From: Nocardia farcinica
GTDB lineage: Bacteria > Actinomycetota > Actinomycetes > Mycobacteriales > Mycobacteriaceae
Reading direction: 5' to 3'
Assembly (NCBI RefSeq): GCF_001182745.1
Contig: NZ_LN868939.1
Coordinates: 2,046,001 to 2,110,000 of the forward strand
Length of the DNA: 64,000 nucleotides
Shown: positions 11,535 through 50,097 of the stretch, one piece after another
Layout: each line of letters opens with the position of its first letter
How positions within the stretch are numbered: the stretch's first letter is position 1
Notes under the pieces: model-generated
The model's database searches: none
Seen by the model: only the letters and a program-made list of their open reading frames with translations
Told to the model about the DNA's origin: nothing
Translations under genes and position numbers: made by a program

Positions 11535-13685
11535 ATGATGGTGACCGTGCCCGCCCTCGATCTCGCCGCCCTGGACCCCGAGCAGGCCGCCGCGGTCCGC
11601 GCACCGCGCGGGCCGGTGTGTGTGCTGGCCGGCGCGGGTACCGGCAAGACCAGGACCATCACCTACCGCATCGCGCACCTGGTCGAGGCAGGCCACGTGA
11701 AGGCCGAGCAGGTGCTGGCGGTCACCTTCACCGCACGGGCGGCGGGGGAGTTGCGGGGCAGGCTGCGCGCGCTCGGCCTGGGCGGCGCCGCCAACCAGGT
11801 GCAGGCGCGCACCTTCCACGCCGCCGCGTTGCGTCAGCTCAAGTACTTCTGGCCGCAGGTCGTCGGCGAGGTGCCGTGGCGGCTGCTCGAGGCCAAGTTC
11901 CCGGTGGTCGCCCAGGCCGCGCACCGCGTCGGCCTGTCCACGGCCACCGAGAGCGTGCGCGATCTGCTCACCGAGATCGAGTGGGCGAAGTCCTCCCTCG
12001 TCGCCCCCGAGGACTATCCGGCCGCGGCCGCCGCCCACCACCGCGACATCCCCTACGACGCCGGGCGCATCGCCGCGGTCTACACCGCCTACGAATCGCT
12101 GAAGACCACACCCGAGGGCCTGCTGCTCGACTTCGACGACCTGCTCCTGCACACCGCCGCGGCGCTGGAGGACTTCCCCGCCGTCGCCGACGAATTCCGC
12201 GGCCGGTACCGCAGTTTCGTCGTCGACGAATACCAGGACGTCACCCCGCTGCAACAGCGGGTACTCGACGCCTGGCTGGGCGAGCGCGACGACCTCACCG
12301 TCGTCGGCGACGCGAACCAGACGATCTACTCCTTCACCGGCGCCACCCCGTCCTACCTGCTCGACTTCTCCCGCCGCTTCCCGGACGCCACGGTGGTGCG
12401 GCTCGAGCGCGACTATCGCTCCACCCCGCAGGTGGTCTCGCTGGCCAACCGCGTCATCGGCGCGGCCCGCGGCCGCATCGCCGGTACCCGGCTGCAACTG
12501 GTCGGCCAGCGCCCCGACGGGCCGGAACCGGAGTTCGCCGAATACGACGACGCCCCCGCCGAGGCCGCCGCGGTCGCCGCGAAGATCGAGCGGCTCGTCG
12601 CGGCGGGCACCCCGCCCGCGGAGATCGCGGTGCTGTACCGGATCAACGCGCAGTCGGAGGCCTACGAACAGGCACTGACCGAACGCGGCATCCCGTTCCA
12701 GGTGCGCGGCGGCGAAGGCTTCTACCAGCGTGCCGAGGTGCGGCAGGCGCTCGGGGCGCTGCGGCAGGCCGCGTCTCGCGACGATCTGCCCGACGAGGCG
12801 CGCACGGGTGCGGCCCTGGTGCGGTTGGTGCGCGCGGCCCTGGCCCCGGTCGGGCTCACCGCCACCGAACCGGCGGGCGCGCAGGCCAGGGAGCGCTGGG
12901 CATCGCTGACGGCCCTGGTGACCCTCACCGAGGAACTGGTCGCCCACGACGCGGCGCTCGACCTGACCGGCCTGCTCCGTGAGCTGGCCGCCCGCGCCGA
13001 GGCCAGGCATCCACCGACGGTGCAGGGCGTCACGCTGGCCTCGCTGCACGCCGCCAAGGGCCTGGAATGGGATGCGGTGTTCCTGGTCGGTCTCACCGAC
13101 GGCACGCTGCCGATCGCGCACGTGCTCGCCGACGACGGCTCGGTCGCCGATGTCGCCGCCCTCGAGGAGGAGCGCAGGCTGCTCTACGTCGGTGTCACGC
13201 GGGCGCGGGAGTACCTGCGGCTGTCCTGGTCGCTGTCCCGCACCGAGGGCGGCCGTCGCTCGCGCAGGCGGTCGCGCTTCCTCAACGGCCTGGTCCCGGA
13301 CGACTCGCCCGCCTCGCGCGTGGCCGCGCCCGCCATGCGGCCCTCCGAGGTGAACCGCCCGCGCTGCCGCGTGTGCGCGAAGCCGCTGATCGGCACCTAC
13401 GCGACCATGCTCGGCCGGTGCCGCCGCTGCCCGGCCGAGGTGGACGCGGACCTGCTGGCCGCGCTGCGGGAATGGCGCGCCGAGAAGGCCGGCGAACTGG
13501 GGGTGCGGGAGTTCGTCGTGTTCACCGACACCACCCTCACCGCGATCGCCGAGCAACTGCCCGCCGACGACCGGGCACTGGCCGGTATCGCGGGCATCGG
13601 CGCGAAGAAGATCGTCGACTACGGAGCCGAGGTACTGGCGATCGTGGCGTCGCGAGTACGGTCGGGATCACAAAACCGCAGGTAG
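11535..13685 (+). CDS. uvrD2: ATP-dependent DNA helicase UvrD2
   Basis: 716 residues (ATG 11535; ATG 11538 is equally plausible). Superfamily 1A motor motifs: Walker [10 protein letters not shown] near residue 33, DEYQD near residue 231, [36 protein letters not shown] and [13 protein letters not shown]. What separates UvrD2 from UvrD1 and PcrA is the tail: a tetracysteine module CRVCAKPL...CRRCP (about residues 609-632) and then an HRDC domain ending in [11 protein letters not shown]. Mycobacterial UvrD2 is essential and needs the zinc module for duplex unwinding (established). Transcribed divergently from mrx1 and upstream of the whiB7 leader. Confidence 0.95.
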
Positions 13686-13722
13686 AAAATAGGTTGTCGG
13701 TTTCGCGGACAACGCATATGGT
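13686..13722 (+). promoter_or_regulatory. WhiB7-type autoregulated promoter of whiB7
   Basis: AAAAT (13686-13690) lies three bases before a -35 element TTGTCG (13694-13699). A 17-base spacer then leads to a -10 element TATGGT (13717-13722). An AT-rich box immediately upstream of the -35 is the known docking site of the WhiB7 AT-hook at sigma-A promoters, including its own. Transcription would start near 13729, giving a leader of about 500 nt. Confidence 0.75.
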
Positions 13723-13810
13723 GGTTTCACGCACCGGGAGGGTATTCCGGCGCGCCAGTTTCGACACCTGATCCACCGATCGGCGACCAGTACGGAAGGG
13801 AGGCTCGACG

Positions 13811-14092
13811 ATGAACGGCATCACCGAATTCGCTGTCAATGGCGTTGCGGTGTACAGCCCTGTCGCGGCCTCCCCGCGCTTTGTCGCGCACCGTTTCGGC
13901 GCGCAGCAGGGGACCGGTCTGTCCGAGATGCACGCGTTCGGCGTGATCGCTGTGGACAAGGCCGCCGCAGGCTGGCGACCGGCCGTTGCCGAGGCAGCAG
14001 CCGGTGTCGCCGCACCCATTTCGGCACGCCTGCGCAATGCCGACCATCCCGCGTCCGTGATCAGGAGTCGACACAGATGTCGACATAGGTAG
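13811..14092 (+). CDS. Leader ORF (uORF) upstream of whiB7
   Basis: A 93-codon ORF inside the whiB7 leader. It has an excellent ribosome binding site, AAGGGAGG, before its ATG, so it is very likely translated. The peptide resembles nothing I recognise. Its last nine sense codons read R-S-R-H-R-C-R-H-R using AGG, AGT, CGA, CAC, AGA, TGT, CGA, CAT, AGG, most of which should be rare in a GC-rich actinomycete; the upstream part uses mostly GC-ending codons. The end overlaps hairpins and is followed within about 20 bases by an intrinsic terminator. This suggests a ribosome-sensing attenuator. Mycobacterial whiB7 leaders also contain a uORF and terminator (established), but from memory those uORFs are shorter. 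Confidence 0.6.
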   Translation: MNGITEFAVNGVAVYSPVAASPRFVAHRFGAQQGTGLSEMHAFGVIAVDKAAAGWRPAVAEAAAGVAAPISARLRNADHPASVIRSRHRCRHR

Positions 14093-14108
14093 GGGAACGC
14101 CCCGACCT
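14067..14108 (+). promoter_or_regulatory. Two hairpins overlapping the end of the whiB7 uORF
   Basis: Hairpin 1: GTCGACA (14067-14073), loop CAGA, TGTCGAC (14078-14084), a perfect 7-bp stem lying on the putative rare-codon cluster. Hairpin 2: AGGTAGGGG (14087-14095), loop AACG, CCCCGACCT (14100-14108), with one mismatch, covering the last arginine codon and the stop. A ribosome stalled in the cluster would melt one or both and could change folding of the terminator just downstream. TCCGTG (14054-14059) could alternatively pair with CACGGA (14115-14120) in the terminator arm, as a short antiterminator. Confidence 0.6.
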
Positions 14109-14111
14109 CCC

Positions 14112-14149
14112 GGCCACGGATCGCACGACGCGAAACCGTGGCCATTTTT
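14112..14149 (+). terminator. Intrinsic terminator (attenuator) in the whiB7 leader
   Basis: GGCCACGG (14112-14119) pairs with CCGTGGCC (14136-14143) and is followed at once by ATTTTT (14144-14149), a classic stem plus U-tract. Such U-tracts are scarce in this GC-rich window. It stands between the uORF and whiB7, about 80 bases before the whiB7 start. Confidence 0.85.
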
Positions 14150-14228
14150 CTGTTTCGGCCCTTCAGCCGGCAGGCACCGGTTTCGCCCGACGAGAACGAC
14201 CGCTGCAAACGAGCTGAAGGAGAACGAC

Positions 14229-14552
14229 GTGTTCACCGCAGAGCGAATGACCTCCGCCACTGCTGACGTGACATGCCGAACCGTGGCCGGGAAGACCCCC
14301 GCCCGTGACATCGCGACGGTGCTGCCGTGCCGTGTCGAGGACCCCGACCTGTGGTTCGCCGAGAGCCCGGTCCAGTTGGAGCAGGCCAAGGCGCTGTGCG
14401 CGTCCTGTCCCATCCGCAAGGGCTGCCTGAGCGCGGCCATCGACCGGCGTGAGCCGTGGGGTGTCTGGGGCGGCGAGATCTTCGACCAGGGCGTCGTGAT
14501 CGCGCGCAAGCGCCCCCGGGGCAGGCCCCGCAAGGTGGCGGTCCCGGCGTGA
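14229..14552 (+). CDS. whiB7: WhiB7 iron-sulfur transcriptional activator
   Basis: 107 residues from a GTG preceded by AAGGAG. Four cysteines bind a 4Fe-4S cluster (LPCRVEDP, then ALCASCPIRKGC). The WhiB turn EPWGVWGGE follows, and a C-terminal AT-hook RGRPRK identifies WhiB7 specifically. WhiB7 binds sigma-A region 4 and activates intrinsic-resistance genes for macrolides, aminoglycosides, tetracyclines and others, as well as its own gene (established in mycobacteria and Streptomyces). The promoter and attenuated leader upstream support inducible autoregulation. The next gene, an ABC1 kinase, is convergent, with a strong hairpin between. Confidence 0.96.
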   Translation: MFTAERMTSATADVTCRTVAGKTPARDIATVLPCRVEDPDLWFAESPVQLEQAKALCASCPIRKGCLSAAIDRREPWGVWGGEIFDQGVVIARKRPRGRPRKVAVPA

Positions 14553-14636
14553 GGCCGGGCATGTCGCCCCTCCCTCCGTGCACTGCGGCCCGGCCGTCCA
14601 CCCCGGACCGCCCGGCCCAGCTACGCGAAAGCAGAC

Positions 14637-14670
14637 GAGCCGCTCACCCCTGTTTCCCGGTGAGCGGCTC
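14637..14670. terminator. Bidirectional hairpin terminator between whiB7 and the ABC1 kinase gene
   Basis: GAGCCGCTCACC (14637-14648) and GGTGAGCGGCTC (14659-14670) form a perfect 12-bp stem with a 10-base loop between two convergent genes. No long U-tract. Confidence 0.75.
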
Positions 14671-14688
14671 GACTGCGTGCTCGAAACC

Positions 14689-16032
14689 TCAGCTGGCCGA
14701 GCGGTGTTCGCGCAGGCCCGGCAGCCAGGTGTAGGCCAGCTGCATGAACGGGATCTCGGCGTCGAGCTGGGCCAGGATGCCGACGGAGCCGCCGAGGACA
14801 CGGAAGATCATCACGTAATCTGCGGGAAGTTGCAGTGCGCGAGCCGTTTTCATCTCCGCACTGGAGAAGTCGGTGGCCTTGCCCGCGACCCGCTGCATCC
14901 ACCGGCGGGTGAAATGGAACGAGTCGGTGCGGATCGGGTCGGAGAACGGGCGCAGATAGTCGGCGATCTCCTGCTCGGTGACGGTGCGGCCCGGGATCAC
15001 CCAGCCGTTCTCCTTCATCAACCGGGTCAGCCCGTCGTAGTCCTCCTCGACGGCCATCGCCAGCATCTGCCCGAGCACCTCGGGAAAGCCGTTCGGCAGC
15101 GGTGCGCAGGCACCGAAATCGATGACGGCCAGCTTGTCGTCGGGCAGCATCATGAAGTTGCCGGGATGCGGGTCGGCGTGCAGCAGGCCGACCGCCTCGG
15201 GCGCGGAGAAGTGGAAACGCCCCATCAGCAGCGCGACCCGGTTCCGCAGGTCTCTGGTGCCGGCCGGATCGGCCTGGCCCGCCTTGATGATCGCCGACAC
15301 CGGTGTGCCGTCGAGCCATTCGCTGACGATCACCTTCGGGGCGCTGGCCACGACCTTCGGGATCACGATCTCGGGGTGCCCGTCGTAGGCCTTGGCGAAG
15401 GCGCGCTGATTGGCGGCCTCGTTGCGGTAGTCGAGTTCTTCCTCGGTGCGCTCGGTGATCTCGGCGAGGATCGGCTTGACGTCCGCGCCGGGGATCACCG
15501 AGGAGATCAGGCCGGTCATCCGCGACAGCGTCTTCAGATCGGCGCGCAACGCGTCGTCGGCACCCGGATACTGCACCTTCACGGCGACGGTGCGGCCGTC
15601 CGACCACACCGCCTTGTGCACCTGCCCGATACTCGCGGACGCGGCGGGCGTGTCGTCGAAGGAGCGGAACCGCTGCCGCCACTGCGTGCCCAGCTGCTGA
15701 TCCAGCACCCGGTGCACGGTCGCGGCGGGCATCGGCGGCGCGGCGGCCTGTAACTTGGTCAACGCGTCGCGGTAGTGCTCACCGAATTCCTCGGGCACCG
15801 CAGCTTCCATCACGCTCAGCGCCTGGCCGAACTTCATCGCACCGCCCTTGAGCTCACCGAGCACGGTGAACAGCTGCTCGGCGGCCTTCTGGTTGAGCTG
15901 AGCGTTGATCTCGGTCCGATCGCCACCGGCCAGCCTCCGGCCGAAGCCGACGGCGGCTCGTCCGGCGATACCGAGCGGAATCTTGGCTAACTTGGCGTTT
16001 CGGGACGAGCCACGGCGCGCGATCTCTGACAC
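14689..16032 (-). CDS. ABC1/UbiB (AarF) family atypical kinase
   Basis: About 447 residues from GTG 16032; GTG 16035 is adjacent. The open frame continues upstream but the extra residues look non-family. UbiB hallmarks are present: the KxGQ motif GGAMKFGQALS, the alanine-rich nucleotide loop AASASIGQVHKA, the VAVKVQYPG lysine, HADPHPGNF in place of the normal catalytic loop, and VIDFGACA for the DFG. These proteins are ATPases tied to isoprenoid quinone synthesis or lipid transport. In mycobacteria the neighbour of whiB7 (Rv3197) is in the WhiB7 regulon and has been linked to macrolide tolerance; here it is convergent to whiB7, as there. Confidence 0.92.
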   Translation of the reverse strand: MSEIARRGSSRNAKLAKIPLGIAGRAAVGFGRRLAGGDRTEINAQLNQKAAEQLFTVLGELKGGAMKFGQALSVMEAAVPEEFGEHYRDALTKLQAAAPPMPAATVHRVLDQQLGTQWRQRFRSFDDTPAASASIGQVHKAVWSDGRTVAVKVQYPGADDALRADLKTLSRMTGLISSVIPGADVKPILAEITERTEEELDYRNEAANQRAFAKAYDGHPEIVIPKVVASAPKVIVSEWLDGTPVSAIIKAGQADPAGTRDLRNRVALLMGRFHFSAPEAVGLLHADPHPGNFMMLPDDKLAVIDFGACAPLPNGFPEVLGQMLAMAVEEDYDGLTRLMKENGWVIPGRTVTEQEIADYLRPFSDPIRTDSFHFTRRWMQRVAGKATDFSSAEMKTARALQLPADYVMIFRVLGGSVGILAQLDAEIPFMQLAYTWLPGLREHRSAS

Positions 16033-48600: not shown

Positions 48601-50097
48601 TCAGGCGGCTCGCCGCACGCGGTGCCGGAGGTTGACCAGGGCGTCGACGACCAGGAAGCCGAGCAGGCTCACGCCGACCAGCGGCACGAACCAGCCGACC
48701 AGCACGGCCGCCGCGAGCAGCGGCACCACCAGCCACGGCCGGGACGCGCGCAGTGCGCCGCGGCGGGGCGCCCGGCCCAGCGGAATCCGCGCCGCGCCGC
48801 GGGTCGGCCTGCGCTGCCACCACATGCGGTAGCCGAGCACGATGACCACGACGAGGCCGACCATCGCGGCGAGCAGCAGCAGCTGGTTGGCCAGGCCGAA
48901 CATCAGGCCCATGTGGAACTGGATGCCCCAGTTGGTCAGCTTGGCCATCAGCGGCCAGTCCGCGTAGGGGAGACGGTCGGTGATGGCGCCGGTCGCGCCG
49001 TCGACGGCCACCGCGTCGACGGTGTAGATGCCGGGCATGCGCCGTTCCTTGACGGTGTATGCCTGTTCCGGCCCCGCCGGCACGGTGATCTCGACCGCCT
49101 GCGCGATCCCGGCGGCCCGCGCGGCCAGCTGGGCGCGTTCGATGTCGCCCCCGCGGCCGGCGGACGCGCCGGCCGGCGGCGTCGCGCCACCGCCGTGGTG
49201 GTGATCGCCACCGTGATCGGACGCCGGTGCGGCCCCGGACAATTCGGTGCTCACCGCCGGGGTGGTCCAGCTCAGCTGGGCACGCAGGTCGCCGATGTTG
49301 GCGCCCGCGTAGGCCGACCAGGTCATGCCGGTCACCGACAGCAGCAGCACCAGCGGCAGCAGCCACACGCCGAGCGCGCCGTGCCAGTTCATGCCGCGCA
49401 ACCGGCCGGGTCGCGAGCGATCGGGAGCGAGCAGCCACGCCGGGGAGTTCCTGGCCCGCCGCTGGCGGACCCGGCGCCACCACAGCACCAGCCCGGCCAG
49501 CGCCACGATCCACAGCCACGAGGCCGCCAGCTCGCTGTAGAGCCTGCCGAACTCGCCCAGGTGCAGGTCACGGTGCAGGTGGTCGATCCAGGTGCGCAGC
49601 GGCAGCGCGCCGGAACTGCCGTACACCACCGCGTCGCCGACCGCCCGCGCGGTGTACGGGTCGACGAACACCGCCCGGCGCTCGGACTCCCCGAGCGTGG
49701 GATCGGCGAACAGCACCCGGGTGGTGTCGGTCGGGCCCGGCGCCGGTGCCACGGCCACCAGGGCCAGGTCGGGCCGGACGGCGGTGGCGGCCTCGACCTG
49801 CTCGGCCAGCGGACGCGCGGTCCCGGTGGCGTCGACGGTCAGCAGGTCGCGCGAGACGACCTGTTCGAGGGTGGGCGCGATCGCGTAGAGCGCGCCGGTG
49901 ACGGCGGCGATCAGGATGAACGGCGCCACGAAGACGCCCGCGTAGAAGTGCAGCCGCATGGCCAGGGCCGGCAAGCCGCCGCGGGCGGTAGGGGCGGTGC
50001 CGGGACCGGGCGGCCCGGCCTCGCGGCGGGACTCGGACCCGGCGCTGTCGGCCGGGGACGCCGCGGCGTCGGGGGCGAGAGATTCTGTTGTGCTCAC
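48601..50097 (-). CDS. PepSY-associated TM protein
   Basis: About 498 residues from GTG 50097 (the frame stays open to an ATG at 50262, adding a low-complexity Ala/Ser tail without a ribosome site). Four membrane helices: LHFYAGVFVAPFILIAAVTG, WLWIVALAGLVLWW, ALGVWLLPLVLLLSVTGMTW and LLLLAAMVGLVVVIVLGY, plus a C-terminal pair. PepSY-type extracytoplasmic parts lie between (DHLHRDLHLGEFGRLY). A histidine cluster, DHGGDHHHGGG, in the loop could bind copper or iron. Such proteins often act in siderophore or metal reduction. Confidence 0.85.
   Translation of the reverse strand: MSTTESLAPDAAASPADSAGSESRREAGPPGPGTAPTARGGLPALAMRLHFYAGVFVAPFILIAAVTGALYAIAPTLEQVVSRDLLTVDATGTARPLAEQVEAATAVRPDLALVAVAPAPGPTDTTRVLFADPTLGESERRAVFVDPYTARAVGDAVVYGSSGALPLRTWIDHLHRDLHLGEFGRLYSELAASWLWIVALAGLVLWWRRVRQRRARNSPAWLLAPDRSRPGRLRGMNWHGALGVWLLPLVLLLSVTGMTWSAYAGANIGDLRAQLSWTTPAVSTELSGAAPASDHGGDHHHGGGATPPAGASAGRGGDIERAQLAARAAGIAQAVEITVPAGPEQAYTVKERRMPGIYTVDAVAVDGATGAITDRLPYADWPLMAKLTNWGIQFHMGLMFGLANQLLLLAAMVGLVVVIVLGYRMWWQRRPTRGAARIPLGRAPRRGALRASRPWLVVPLLAAAVLVGWFVPLVGVSLLGFLVVDALVNLRHRVRRAA

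What the first reader, a model, noticed from the sequence alone, without database searches (positions are those of the whole stretch)
13686..14231. whiB7 leader: long uORF ending in an Arg rare-codon cluster, two hairpins and an intrinsic terminator
Seen: WhiB7-type promoter, a 93-codon uORF with a strong ribosome site, and nine terminal codons AGG AGT CGA CAC AGA TGT CGA CAT AGG before the stop. Hairpins (14067-14084, 14087-14108) and a stem plus U-tract (14112-14149) follow. Known: mycobacterial whiB7 is controlled by a uORF-linked attenuator responding to ribosome inhibition. Inference: a ribosome slowed by drugs or by charged tRNA-Arg shortage at these codons would alter hairpin folding and let polymerase read into whiB7. 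A codon-specific sensor in a long uORF would be a variation I do not recall being described.
Basis: partly seen in the sequence, partly recalled or inferred. Interest (0 to 1): 0.8.

Follow-up and report, generated by a model that had tools for sequence, protein, structure and literature searches.

The report
Ribosome-sensing switch upstream of whiB7
The leader in front of whiB7 in this Nocardia genome looks like a ribosome-controlled on/off switch of a known kind, and the rare arginine codons at its end look more like part of the RNA machinery that keeps the gene off than like an arginine sensor.

Summary
In detail: 93-codon uORF, strong SD, five rare Arg codons in the last nine, two hairpins, an intrinsic terminator, then whiB7. 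By anatomy it belongs to the known whiB7/wblC uORF attenuator class; 117 of 117 same-genus leaders examined carry it. The antiterminator strand GCGTCCGTG (14051-14059) lies in the uORF and pairs with the terminator 5' arm (14115-14124). A ribosome-mask model forms the antiterminator for stalls 18-44 codons before the end in 46-48 of 48 diverse species. With the first two Arg codons in the A site the strand is covered (OFF); for the last two the result depends on whether RNA can pair around the ribosome. The whole tail is rare, non-Arg codons included; synonymous sites there are more frozen than amino acids, and some paired bases covary. An Arg-codon sensor is not supported; RNA structure plus, possibly, a brake over the antiterminator fits better. 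New here: in Nocardia the uORF's own SD is complementary to codons 20-22 of the uORF, with compensatory changes, so a leader that loses its ribosome may lock itself ON. An exact 18-nt form of that element was found once each in 86 of 116 genus genomes and in none of 349 other-genus family genomes.

The parts
13686..13722 (+). WhiB7-type promoter: AT-rich box, TTGTCG, 17-nt spacer, TATGGT
   Evidence: sequence; AAAATAGGTTGT and TA.GGT conserved in the 117-leader alignment; generic sigma-70 scan negative; activity not tested; the name 'WhiB7-type' is recalled
13730..13754 (+). P1, 5' hairpin at the expected transcript start
   Evidence: RNAalifold; 5 both-sided events over 9 pairs, but also breaks at most pairs
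13798..13804 (+). SD of the uORF (GGGAGGC), 5' strand of helix P2
   Evidence: helix P2
13811..14092 (+). uORF, 93 codons, ATG to TAG
   Evidence: 117 of 117 leaders have one (86-139 aa)
13868..13874 (+). GCCTCCC inside the uORF, 3' strand of helix P2 (pairs with the SD)
   Evidence: expected SD:mid pairs in this window 6.96 of 7
14051..14059 (+). antiterminator strand GCGTCCGTG
   Evidence: pairs with 14115-14124
14063..14089 (+). rare-codon tail AGG AGT CGA CAC AGA TGT CGA CAT AGG, beginning after one intervening codon from the antiterminator codons
14067..14084 (+). H1 hairpin inside the tail
   Evidence: two pairs kept in 100/103 and 111/112 leaders with 2 and 1 both-sided events; not more stable than synonymous recodings
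14087..14108 (+). H2 hairpin containing the uORF stop codon
   Evidence: predicted in folds; comparative support weak: 1 both-sided event and more breaks
14112..14149 (+). intrinsic terminator GGCCACGG-TCGC / GCGA-CCGTGGCC plus U-tract; 14115-14124 is the antiterminator partner
   Evidence: 11 of 13 stem pairs kept in 117 of 117 leaders, the other two in 108 and 109
14229..14552 (+). whiB7
   Evidence: Pfam PF02467; matched in 117 of 118 genus genomes

Best explanation
This is a ribosome-gated transcription attenuator for whiB7. Normally a ribosome translates the uORF just behind RNA polymerase; near the end of the uORF it covers the antiterminator strand (14051-14059), so the terminator (14112-14149) forms and whiB7 stays off. 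Anything that stops or slows ribosomes earlier in the long uORF, or prevents initiation, leaves that strand free; it pairs with the terminator's 5' arm, with H1 and H2 folded inside the junction, and polymerase reads into whiB7. The rare-codon tail with H1/H2 belongs to the default-OFF arm: it serves the RNA structure and possibly also slows the ribosome while it sits on the antiterminator strand. In Nocardia the uORF's SD can also pair with codons 20-22 of the uORF, so a leader that loses its ribosome would shut its own uORF and stay ON. Shown by comparison and folding: the elements, their conservation and their pairing potential. Inferred: ribosome traffic, the brake and the latch.
For: 117 of 117 leaders keep uORF and terminator arm. 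The antiterminator strand is GCGACCGTG in 90, GCGATCGTG in 14 and GCGTCCGTG in 9 of 117, each one nucleotide short of the perfect complement of CACGGATCGC, the arm in 99 of 117. Mask model: 8.4-8.9 of 9 antiterminator pairs for stalls 18-44 codons before the end, in 46-48 of 48 species. Outside Nocardia 13 of 24 leaders have a complement of 7 or more nt, with CCGCG/CGCGG for CCGTG/CACGG in two of them, L087 and L112. Tail: pS 0.035 against 0.196 in the adjacent body. P2: 111 of 112 extracted leaders pair 6-7 of 7; 4 both-sided events, and 15 changes at one pair without a break. Published uORF/terminator/antiterminator model for this gene (PMC11550727, PMC10727445, PMC13393426, passages).
Against: The strict mask model yields zero pairs for the last codons by construction, since it forbids pairing across the ribosome; in the permissive model a ribosome parked on the last few codons leaves the antiterminator free, which does not explain default termination. 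H1 and the mid-uORF hairpin are not more stable than synonymous recodings (mean z -0.43 and +0.57). 11 of 24 non-Nocardia leaders show less than 7 nt of complementarity and the median shuffle fraction is 0.08. SD complementarity by length alone is not unusual against codon shuffles (median p 0.15); in 7 of 47 species the SD helix is not the dominant fold; 7 pair-breaking events were counted in P2.
Confidence: 0.78

Rival explanations
1. Arg-codon sensor: a ribosome held at AGG/CGA/AGA codons by shortage of charged tRNA-Arg frees the antiterminator and turns whiB7 on.
For: Codons are genuinely rare and 62 of 117 leaders keep five of them in the last nine codons; in the permissive model stalls with the last two Arg codons in the A site leave the antiterminator free.
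Against: First two Arg codons give OFF in both models; tail rarity is general; synonymous sites frozen more than amino acids; CGG replaces CGA together with its partner in some lineages; 16 relatives have 0-4 Arg codons there.
Confidence: 0.08
2. Rare-codon brake: the slow tail holds the ribosome on the antiterminator strand to enforce default termination; RNA structure is secondary.
For: Mean relative usage is 0.80 at the codon after GTG, then 0.11, 0.08 and 0.15; while those three are read the strand is covered in both models; hairpin stability does not demand rare codons; the H1 loop codon is also rare (0.07).
Against: Paired positions covary and would fix several bases anyway; single rare codons also occur 13 and 21 codons before the last one; the tail of 16 relatives is less rare (0.27, scored with this genome's table); no ribosome data.
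Confidence: 0.4
3. Pure RNA-structure constraint: the codons are what the antiterminator, H1 and H2 pairing happens to spell.
For: At the second tail position the third base is T in 79 of 117 while 11 amino acids occur; both-sided changes in H1; in predicted folds the first AGG pairs with CCTCC and the last AGG lies in H2.
Against: Recoded tails fold about as stably; the unpaired loop codon is still rare; H2 pairs have more breaks than compensations.
Confidence: 0.42
4. Nascent-peptide arrest by the conserved C-terminal peptide.
For: The C-terminus looks conserved at protein level; mid and late uORF segments have dN/dS 0.56-0.57, so some peptide constraint elsewhere is possible.
Against: dN/dS 1.76 in the antiterminator-plus-tail segment with pS 0.035; Lys, Ser, Met, Gln or Pro replace Arg at some positions.
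Confidence: 0.05

Closest known systems
whiB7/wblC uORF-mediated attenuator (Lee, Lee & Roe 2022; Burian & Thompson 2018; neither read, known from passages in PMC11550727, PMC10727445, PMC13393426)
   Same: gene, order of parts, uORF then terminator, antiterminator using the uORF end, expected response to translation inhibitors and amino-acid shortage
   Different: Nocardia uORF is long (median 112 aa) with an SD-complementary element and mid-uORF hairpin; rare-codon tail. Whether Lee 2022 describes any of this could not be checked
Mycobacterial whiB7 leader and alanine starvation (Poulton 2024, not held; cited in PMC13236596, passages)
   Same: uORF stalling induces whiB7; this window's uORF body is Ala-rich (20 of 76 codons)
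   Different: Ala excess is modest across the genus (17.9% against 13.9% in the window's genome sample)
Amino-acid attenuators such as ilvB1 of M. tuberculosis (PMC13236596, passages)
   Same: uORF, terminator, antiterminator
   Different: there the control codons lie where stalling frees the antiterminator; here the first Arg codons lie where stalling covers it (model)
E. coli trp leader, whose leader-peptide ribosome site can be occluded by distal leader RNA (recalled, no call)
   Same: self-occlusion of a leader ORF's ribosome site
   Different: here the partner lies inside the uORF itself and shows compensatory changes

Membership tests
whiB7/wblC uORF attenuator | whiB7 orthologue downstream in conserved neighbourhood | tested here: met
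   PF02467; UvrD-type helicase upstream, MABP-1-like ABC1 kinase downstream, below that model's cut-off; whiB7 in 117 of 118 genus genomes. That this matches the mycobacterial neighbourhood is recalled
whiB7/wblC uORF attenuator | uORF with ribosome site in the leader | tested here: met
   117 of 117; translation itself not shown
whiB7/wblC uORF attenuator | intrinsic terminator between uORF and gene | tested here: met
   sequence, conserved stem; the generic scan did not report it
whiB7/wblC uORF attenuator | antiterminator from uORF end exclusive with terminator, gated by ribosome position | tested here: met
   by folding model only
whiB7/wblC uORF attenuator | induction by ribosome inhibitors or amino-acid shortage | not testable with these tools
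   needs a reporter or RNA-seq
trp/ilv-type amino-acid attenuator for arginine | control codons placed so that stalling frees the antiterminator | tested here: not met
   first two Arg codons OFF in both models, AGA intermediate, last two model-dependent
trp/ilv-type amino-acid attenuator for arginine | regulated gene belongs to the pathway of that amino acid | tested here: not met
   the gene is whiB7; its regulon was not examined
arrest-peptide leader (ErmCL/TnaC type) | peptide conserved beyond nucleotide constraint near the stall site | tested here: not met
   antiterminator-plus-tail segment pS 0.035, pN 0.060

The most novel reading that the evidence does not exclude
The Nocardia whiB7 leader is a two-checkpoint translation sensor. 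An elongation checkpoint is read by whether a ribosome reaches and is braked on the antiterminator strand. An initiation checkpoint is a race: if no ribosome has loaded before polymerase makes codons 20-22, these codons capture the uORF's own SD, lock the uORF untranslated and commit the transcript to whiB7. The rare-codon tail acts as an OFF-side brake, the reverse polarity of a classical codon sensor.
Probability: 0.3. Interest if true: 0.65.

Novelty: new variant of a known kind. Interest (0 to 1): 0.5.

Why it matters
whiB7 governs intrinsic multidrug tolerance in actinobacteria, and how its leader senses many unrelated ribosome drugs is a live question. The comparison gives a base-pair map of the switch for Nocardia, a test of polarity for rare codons near an attenuator (brake or sensor), and an SD-latch hypothesis that predicts sensing of initiation as well as elongation. 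It also shows how an apparent rare-codon sensor can be largely RNA structure.

Tried and rejected
Rfam: no match up to E 1 in 13001-15000. H1 and mid-uORF hairpin stability against synonymous recodings: no signal (1 of 48 and 0 of 44 species at p<0.05); only covariation supports them. SD complementarity against codon shuffles: median p 0.15, so length alone is not used as evidence. A second covarying pair near the invariant Trp codon was considered; by eye its neighbours do not pair; dropped. The mid-uORF hairpin is not claimed for this window: L001, L007 and L008 have diverged there. Arrest-peptide and Arg-sensor readings are set aside as in the rivals. L107 and L111 were left out of the count of 24 because the arm rule did not find their terminator. 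In one search five of 117 leaders missed the pattern; one search used a looser rule for all 117. Searches used 114 distinct uORFs of 117. Searches used 48 leaders under 85% identity (47 and 44 for the SD and mid tests), and one search tested ribosomes only up to 44 codons before the end. The first ORF caller missed minus-strand loci and GCGATCGTG types; fixed. My notebook carries slips: wrong positions for the antiterminator strand, no effect on the calls; the report's coordinates come. The tree used for counting events was built from the same leader alignment and midpoint-rooted, so event counts are approximate; the 323 sequence pairs are not independent. One notebook count (16 changes at one P2 pair) is wrong; one search shows 15. 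Codon rarity in other species was scored with this genome's table.

Literature: the listings show no paper on the Nocardia whiB7 leader or on SD sequestration in it; I saw passages of eight papers. Lee 2022 and Poulton 2024 are not held, so absence from print is not established.

Full report
WHAT IS THERE. The order is: UvrD-type helicase gene ending at 13685; promoter (TTGTCG, 17 nt, TATGGT, AT-rich box upstream); 5' hairpin P1; SD GGGAGGC; uORF of 93 codons 13811-14092; H1; H2 with the stop codon; terminator plus U-tract; whiB7 14229-14552 (Pfam WhiB); then an MABP-1-like ABC1 kinase on the other strand. Rfam has no match. The generic promoter and terminator scans report neither element on this strand.

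CONSERVATION. whiB7 is matched in 117 of 118 same-genus genomes; the named relatives indicate that the unnamed genus is Nocardia. All 117 leaders have a uORF of 86-139 codons (median 112) with a 5-6 nt SD match, stop TAG in 110, and the terminator arm GGCCACGG. The nucleotide alignment shows conserved islands: promoter, P1, SD, a mid-uORF block CTCCCGGGGG[AG]TCCTCGC..TGCAGGGGA, the antiterminator block, the tail and the terminator. The exact 18-nt block CTCCCGGGGGRTCCTCGC lies inside the uORF in 88 of 117 leaders and occurs in 86 of 116 genus genomes, once each. In a family-wide sample of 401 genomes it matches 35, all among the 52 of this genus, and none of the 349 of other genera (exact matches only). 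The window's species and two relatives have diverged in the hairpin half of that block but keep GCCTCCC.

ANTITERMINATOR. uORF codons GCG-TCC-GTG (14051-14059) pair with CACGGA-CGC of the terminator 5' arm (14115-14124, one bulge). The strand is GCGACCGTG, GCGATCGTG or GCGTCCGTG in 113 of 117 leaders, each lacking one nucleotide of the perfect complement of CACGGATCGC, the arm in 99 of 117. Strict mask model (only RNA downstream of the ribosome may fold, up to just before the terminator 3' arm): zero antiterminator pairs for ribosomes at the last 12 codons, by construction once the strand is passed or covered, and 8.4-8.9 of 9 pairs for stalls 18-44 codons before the end, in 46-48 of 48 diverse species. 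Without a ribosome it also forms (8.4 of 9). If RNA may pair around the ribosome, the OFF zone is P-site positions 6-15 codons before the last (means up to 1.0 pair), position 5 is intermediate, and 0-4 become ON. The gain from antiterminator pairing is 12.8 kcal/mol with H1/H2 and 9.6 without. Relatives: 13 of 24 have 7 or more nt of complementarity (median shuffle fraction 0.08), two of them with CCGCG/CGCGG in place of CCGTG/CACGG (L087, L112).

THE ARG CODONS. They are rare (AGA 0.70, AGG 3.68, CGA 4.32 per 1000 of 78,462 codons from 214 picked ORFs) and the cluster is extreme. Four results argue against an Arg sensor. First, with the first AGG or CGA in the A site the antiterminator is covered in both models; AGA is intermediate (56% of species); the last two depend on the model. 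Second, the whole tail is rare: relative usage 0.13 in the last nine codons against 0.46 in the body, and 0.19 for non-Arg tail codons alone. Third, synonymous sites change less than amino-acid sites in the antiterminator-plus-tail segment (pS 0.035, pN 0.060, dN/dS 1.76); the late body has pS 0.196 and dN/dS 0.57, the mid element pS 0.041 and dN/dS 0.56, the early body dN/dS 1.00, and part of whiB7 0.18 (323 pairs; 216 for whiB7). Fourth, in H1 T-A becomes C-G twice and A-T becomes G-C once (100/103 and 111/112 leaders paired). Sixteen relatives have 0-4 Arg codons in the last nine; in the Rhodococcus and Aldersonia sequences a stop-proximal hairpin can be read by eye, not tested. Against a purely structural account: recoded tails fold about as well, the rare run starts abruptly after one intervening codon, and the H1 loop codon is rare too. 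A brake on the OFF side is therefore plausible but not shown.

THE SD ELEMENT (not seen in the papers I could search). GGGAGGC of the uORF's SD and GCCTCCC in the uORF (13798-13804, 13868-13874) are complementary. In the strict extraction 111 of 112 leaders pair at 6-7 of 7 positions, and five leaders missed the pattern. In the looser extraction of all 117 there are 4 both-sided events, 15 changes at one pair with no break, and 7 breaks in all at three other pairs. RNAalifold of 41 leaders predicts the helix. Real sequences give 6.2 of 7 expected pairs against 0.9 after synonymous recoding; SD pairing 0.96 against 0.73; 40 of 47 species at 5 or more pairs. Length of complementarity alone is not exceptional; 15 leaders outside Nocardia tested by the same rule show 4-6 nt. 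The adjoining hairpin carries the best canonical covarying pair, under my filters, of 104,524 column pairs (fifth of all by score): A-U with G-C, 102 of 114 paired against a shuffle mean of 75 and maximum of 83, with five both-sided events; two peptide versions (I..I and V..T) follow the RNA pair. Its energy is not better than recodings.

MECHANISM AND STATUS. The attenuator class is established for whiB7/wblC (passages of PMC11550727, PMC10727445, PMC13393426). Membership rests on tested anatomy; induction is untested here. The added Nocardia parts make it a variant: a long uORF, a possible SD latch, a rare-codon tail. The latch and brake are inferences from pairing, position and codon use.

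Noticed in passing
14105-14113: Conserved CCTCC(T)GG just before the terminator resembles the 16S anti-SD; in predicted folds it pairs with the first tail AGG in the antiterminator and with the last AGG in H2, but could also touch SD sequences.
   Followed up: partly
L178: One Nocardia leader has a shortened uORF (86 codons, TGA) that lost most tail codons but keeps an antiterminator strand and terminator.
   Followed up: no
L138, L149 and relatives (N. carnea group): Tail shifted by an indel: the uORF runs on to TAA and common Arg codons CGG and CGC appear, with CGGC/GCCG arms still readable by eye.
   Followed up: partly
49402-49499: ARAGORN calls a 98-nt tRNA-Ala with anticodon AGC on the minus strand; the Infernal tRNA scan of the genome does not list it, so it is probably false.
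   Followed up: partly
13952-13967: Second-ranked canonical covarying pair near the invariant Trp codon of the uORF; no helix found.
   Followed up: partly
L101, uORF start region: In Mycobacterium nebraskense the SD is followed by GTGGCCACG, matching the terminator arm sequence; possible further alternative pairing.
   Followed up: no
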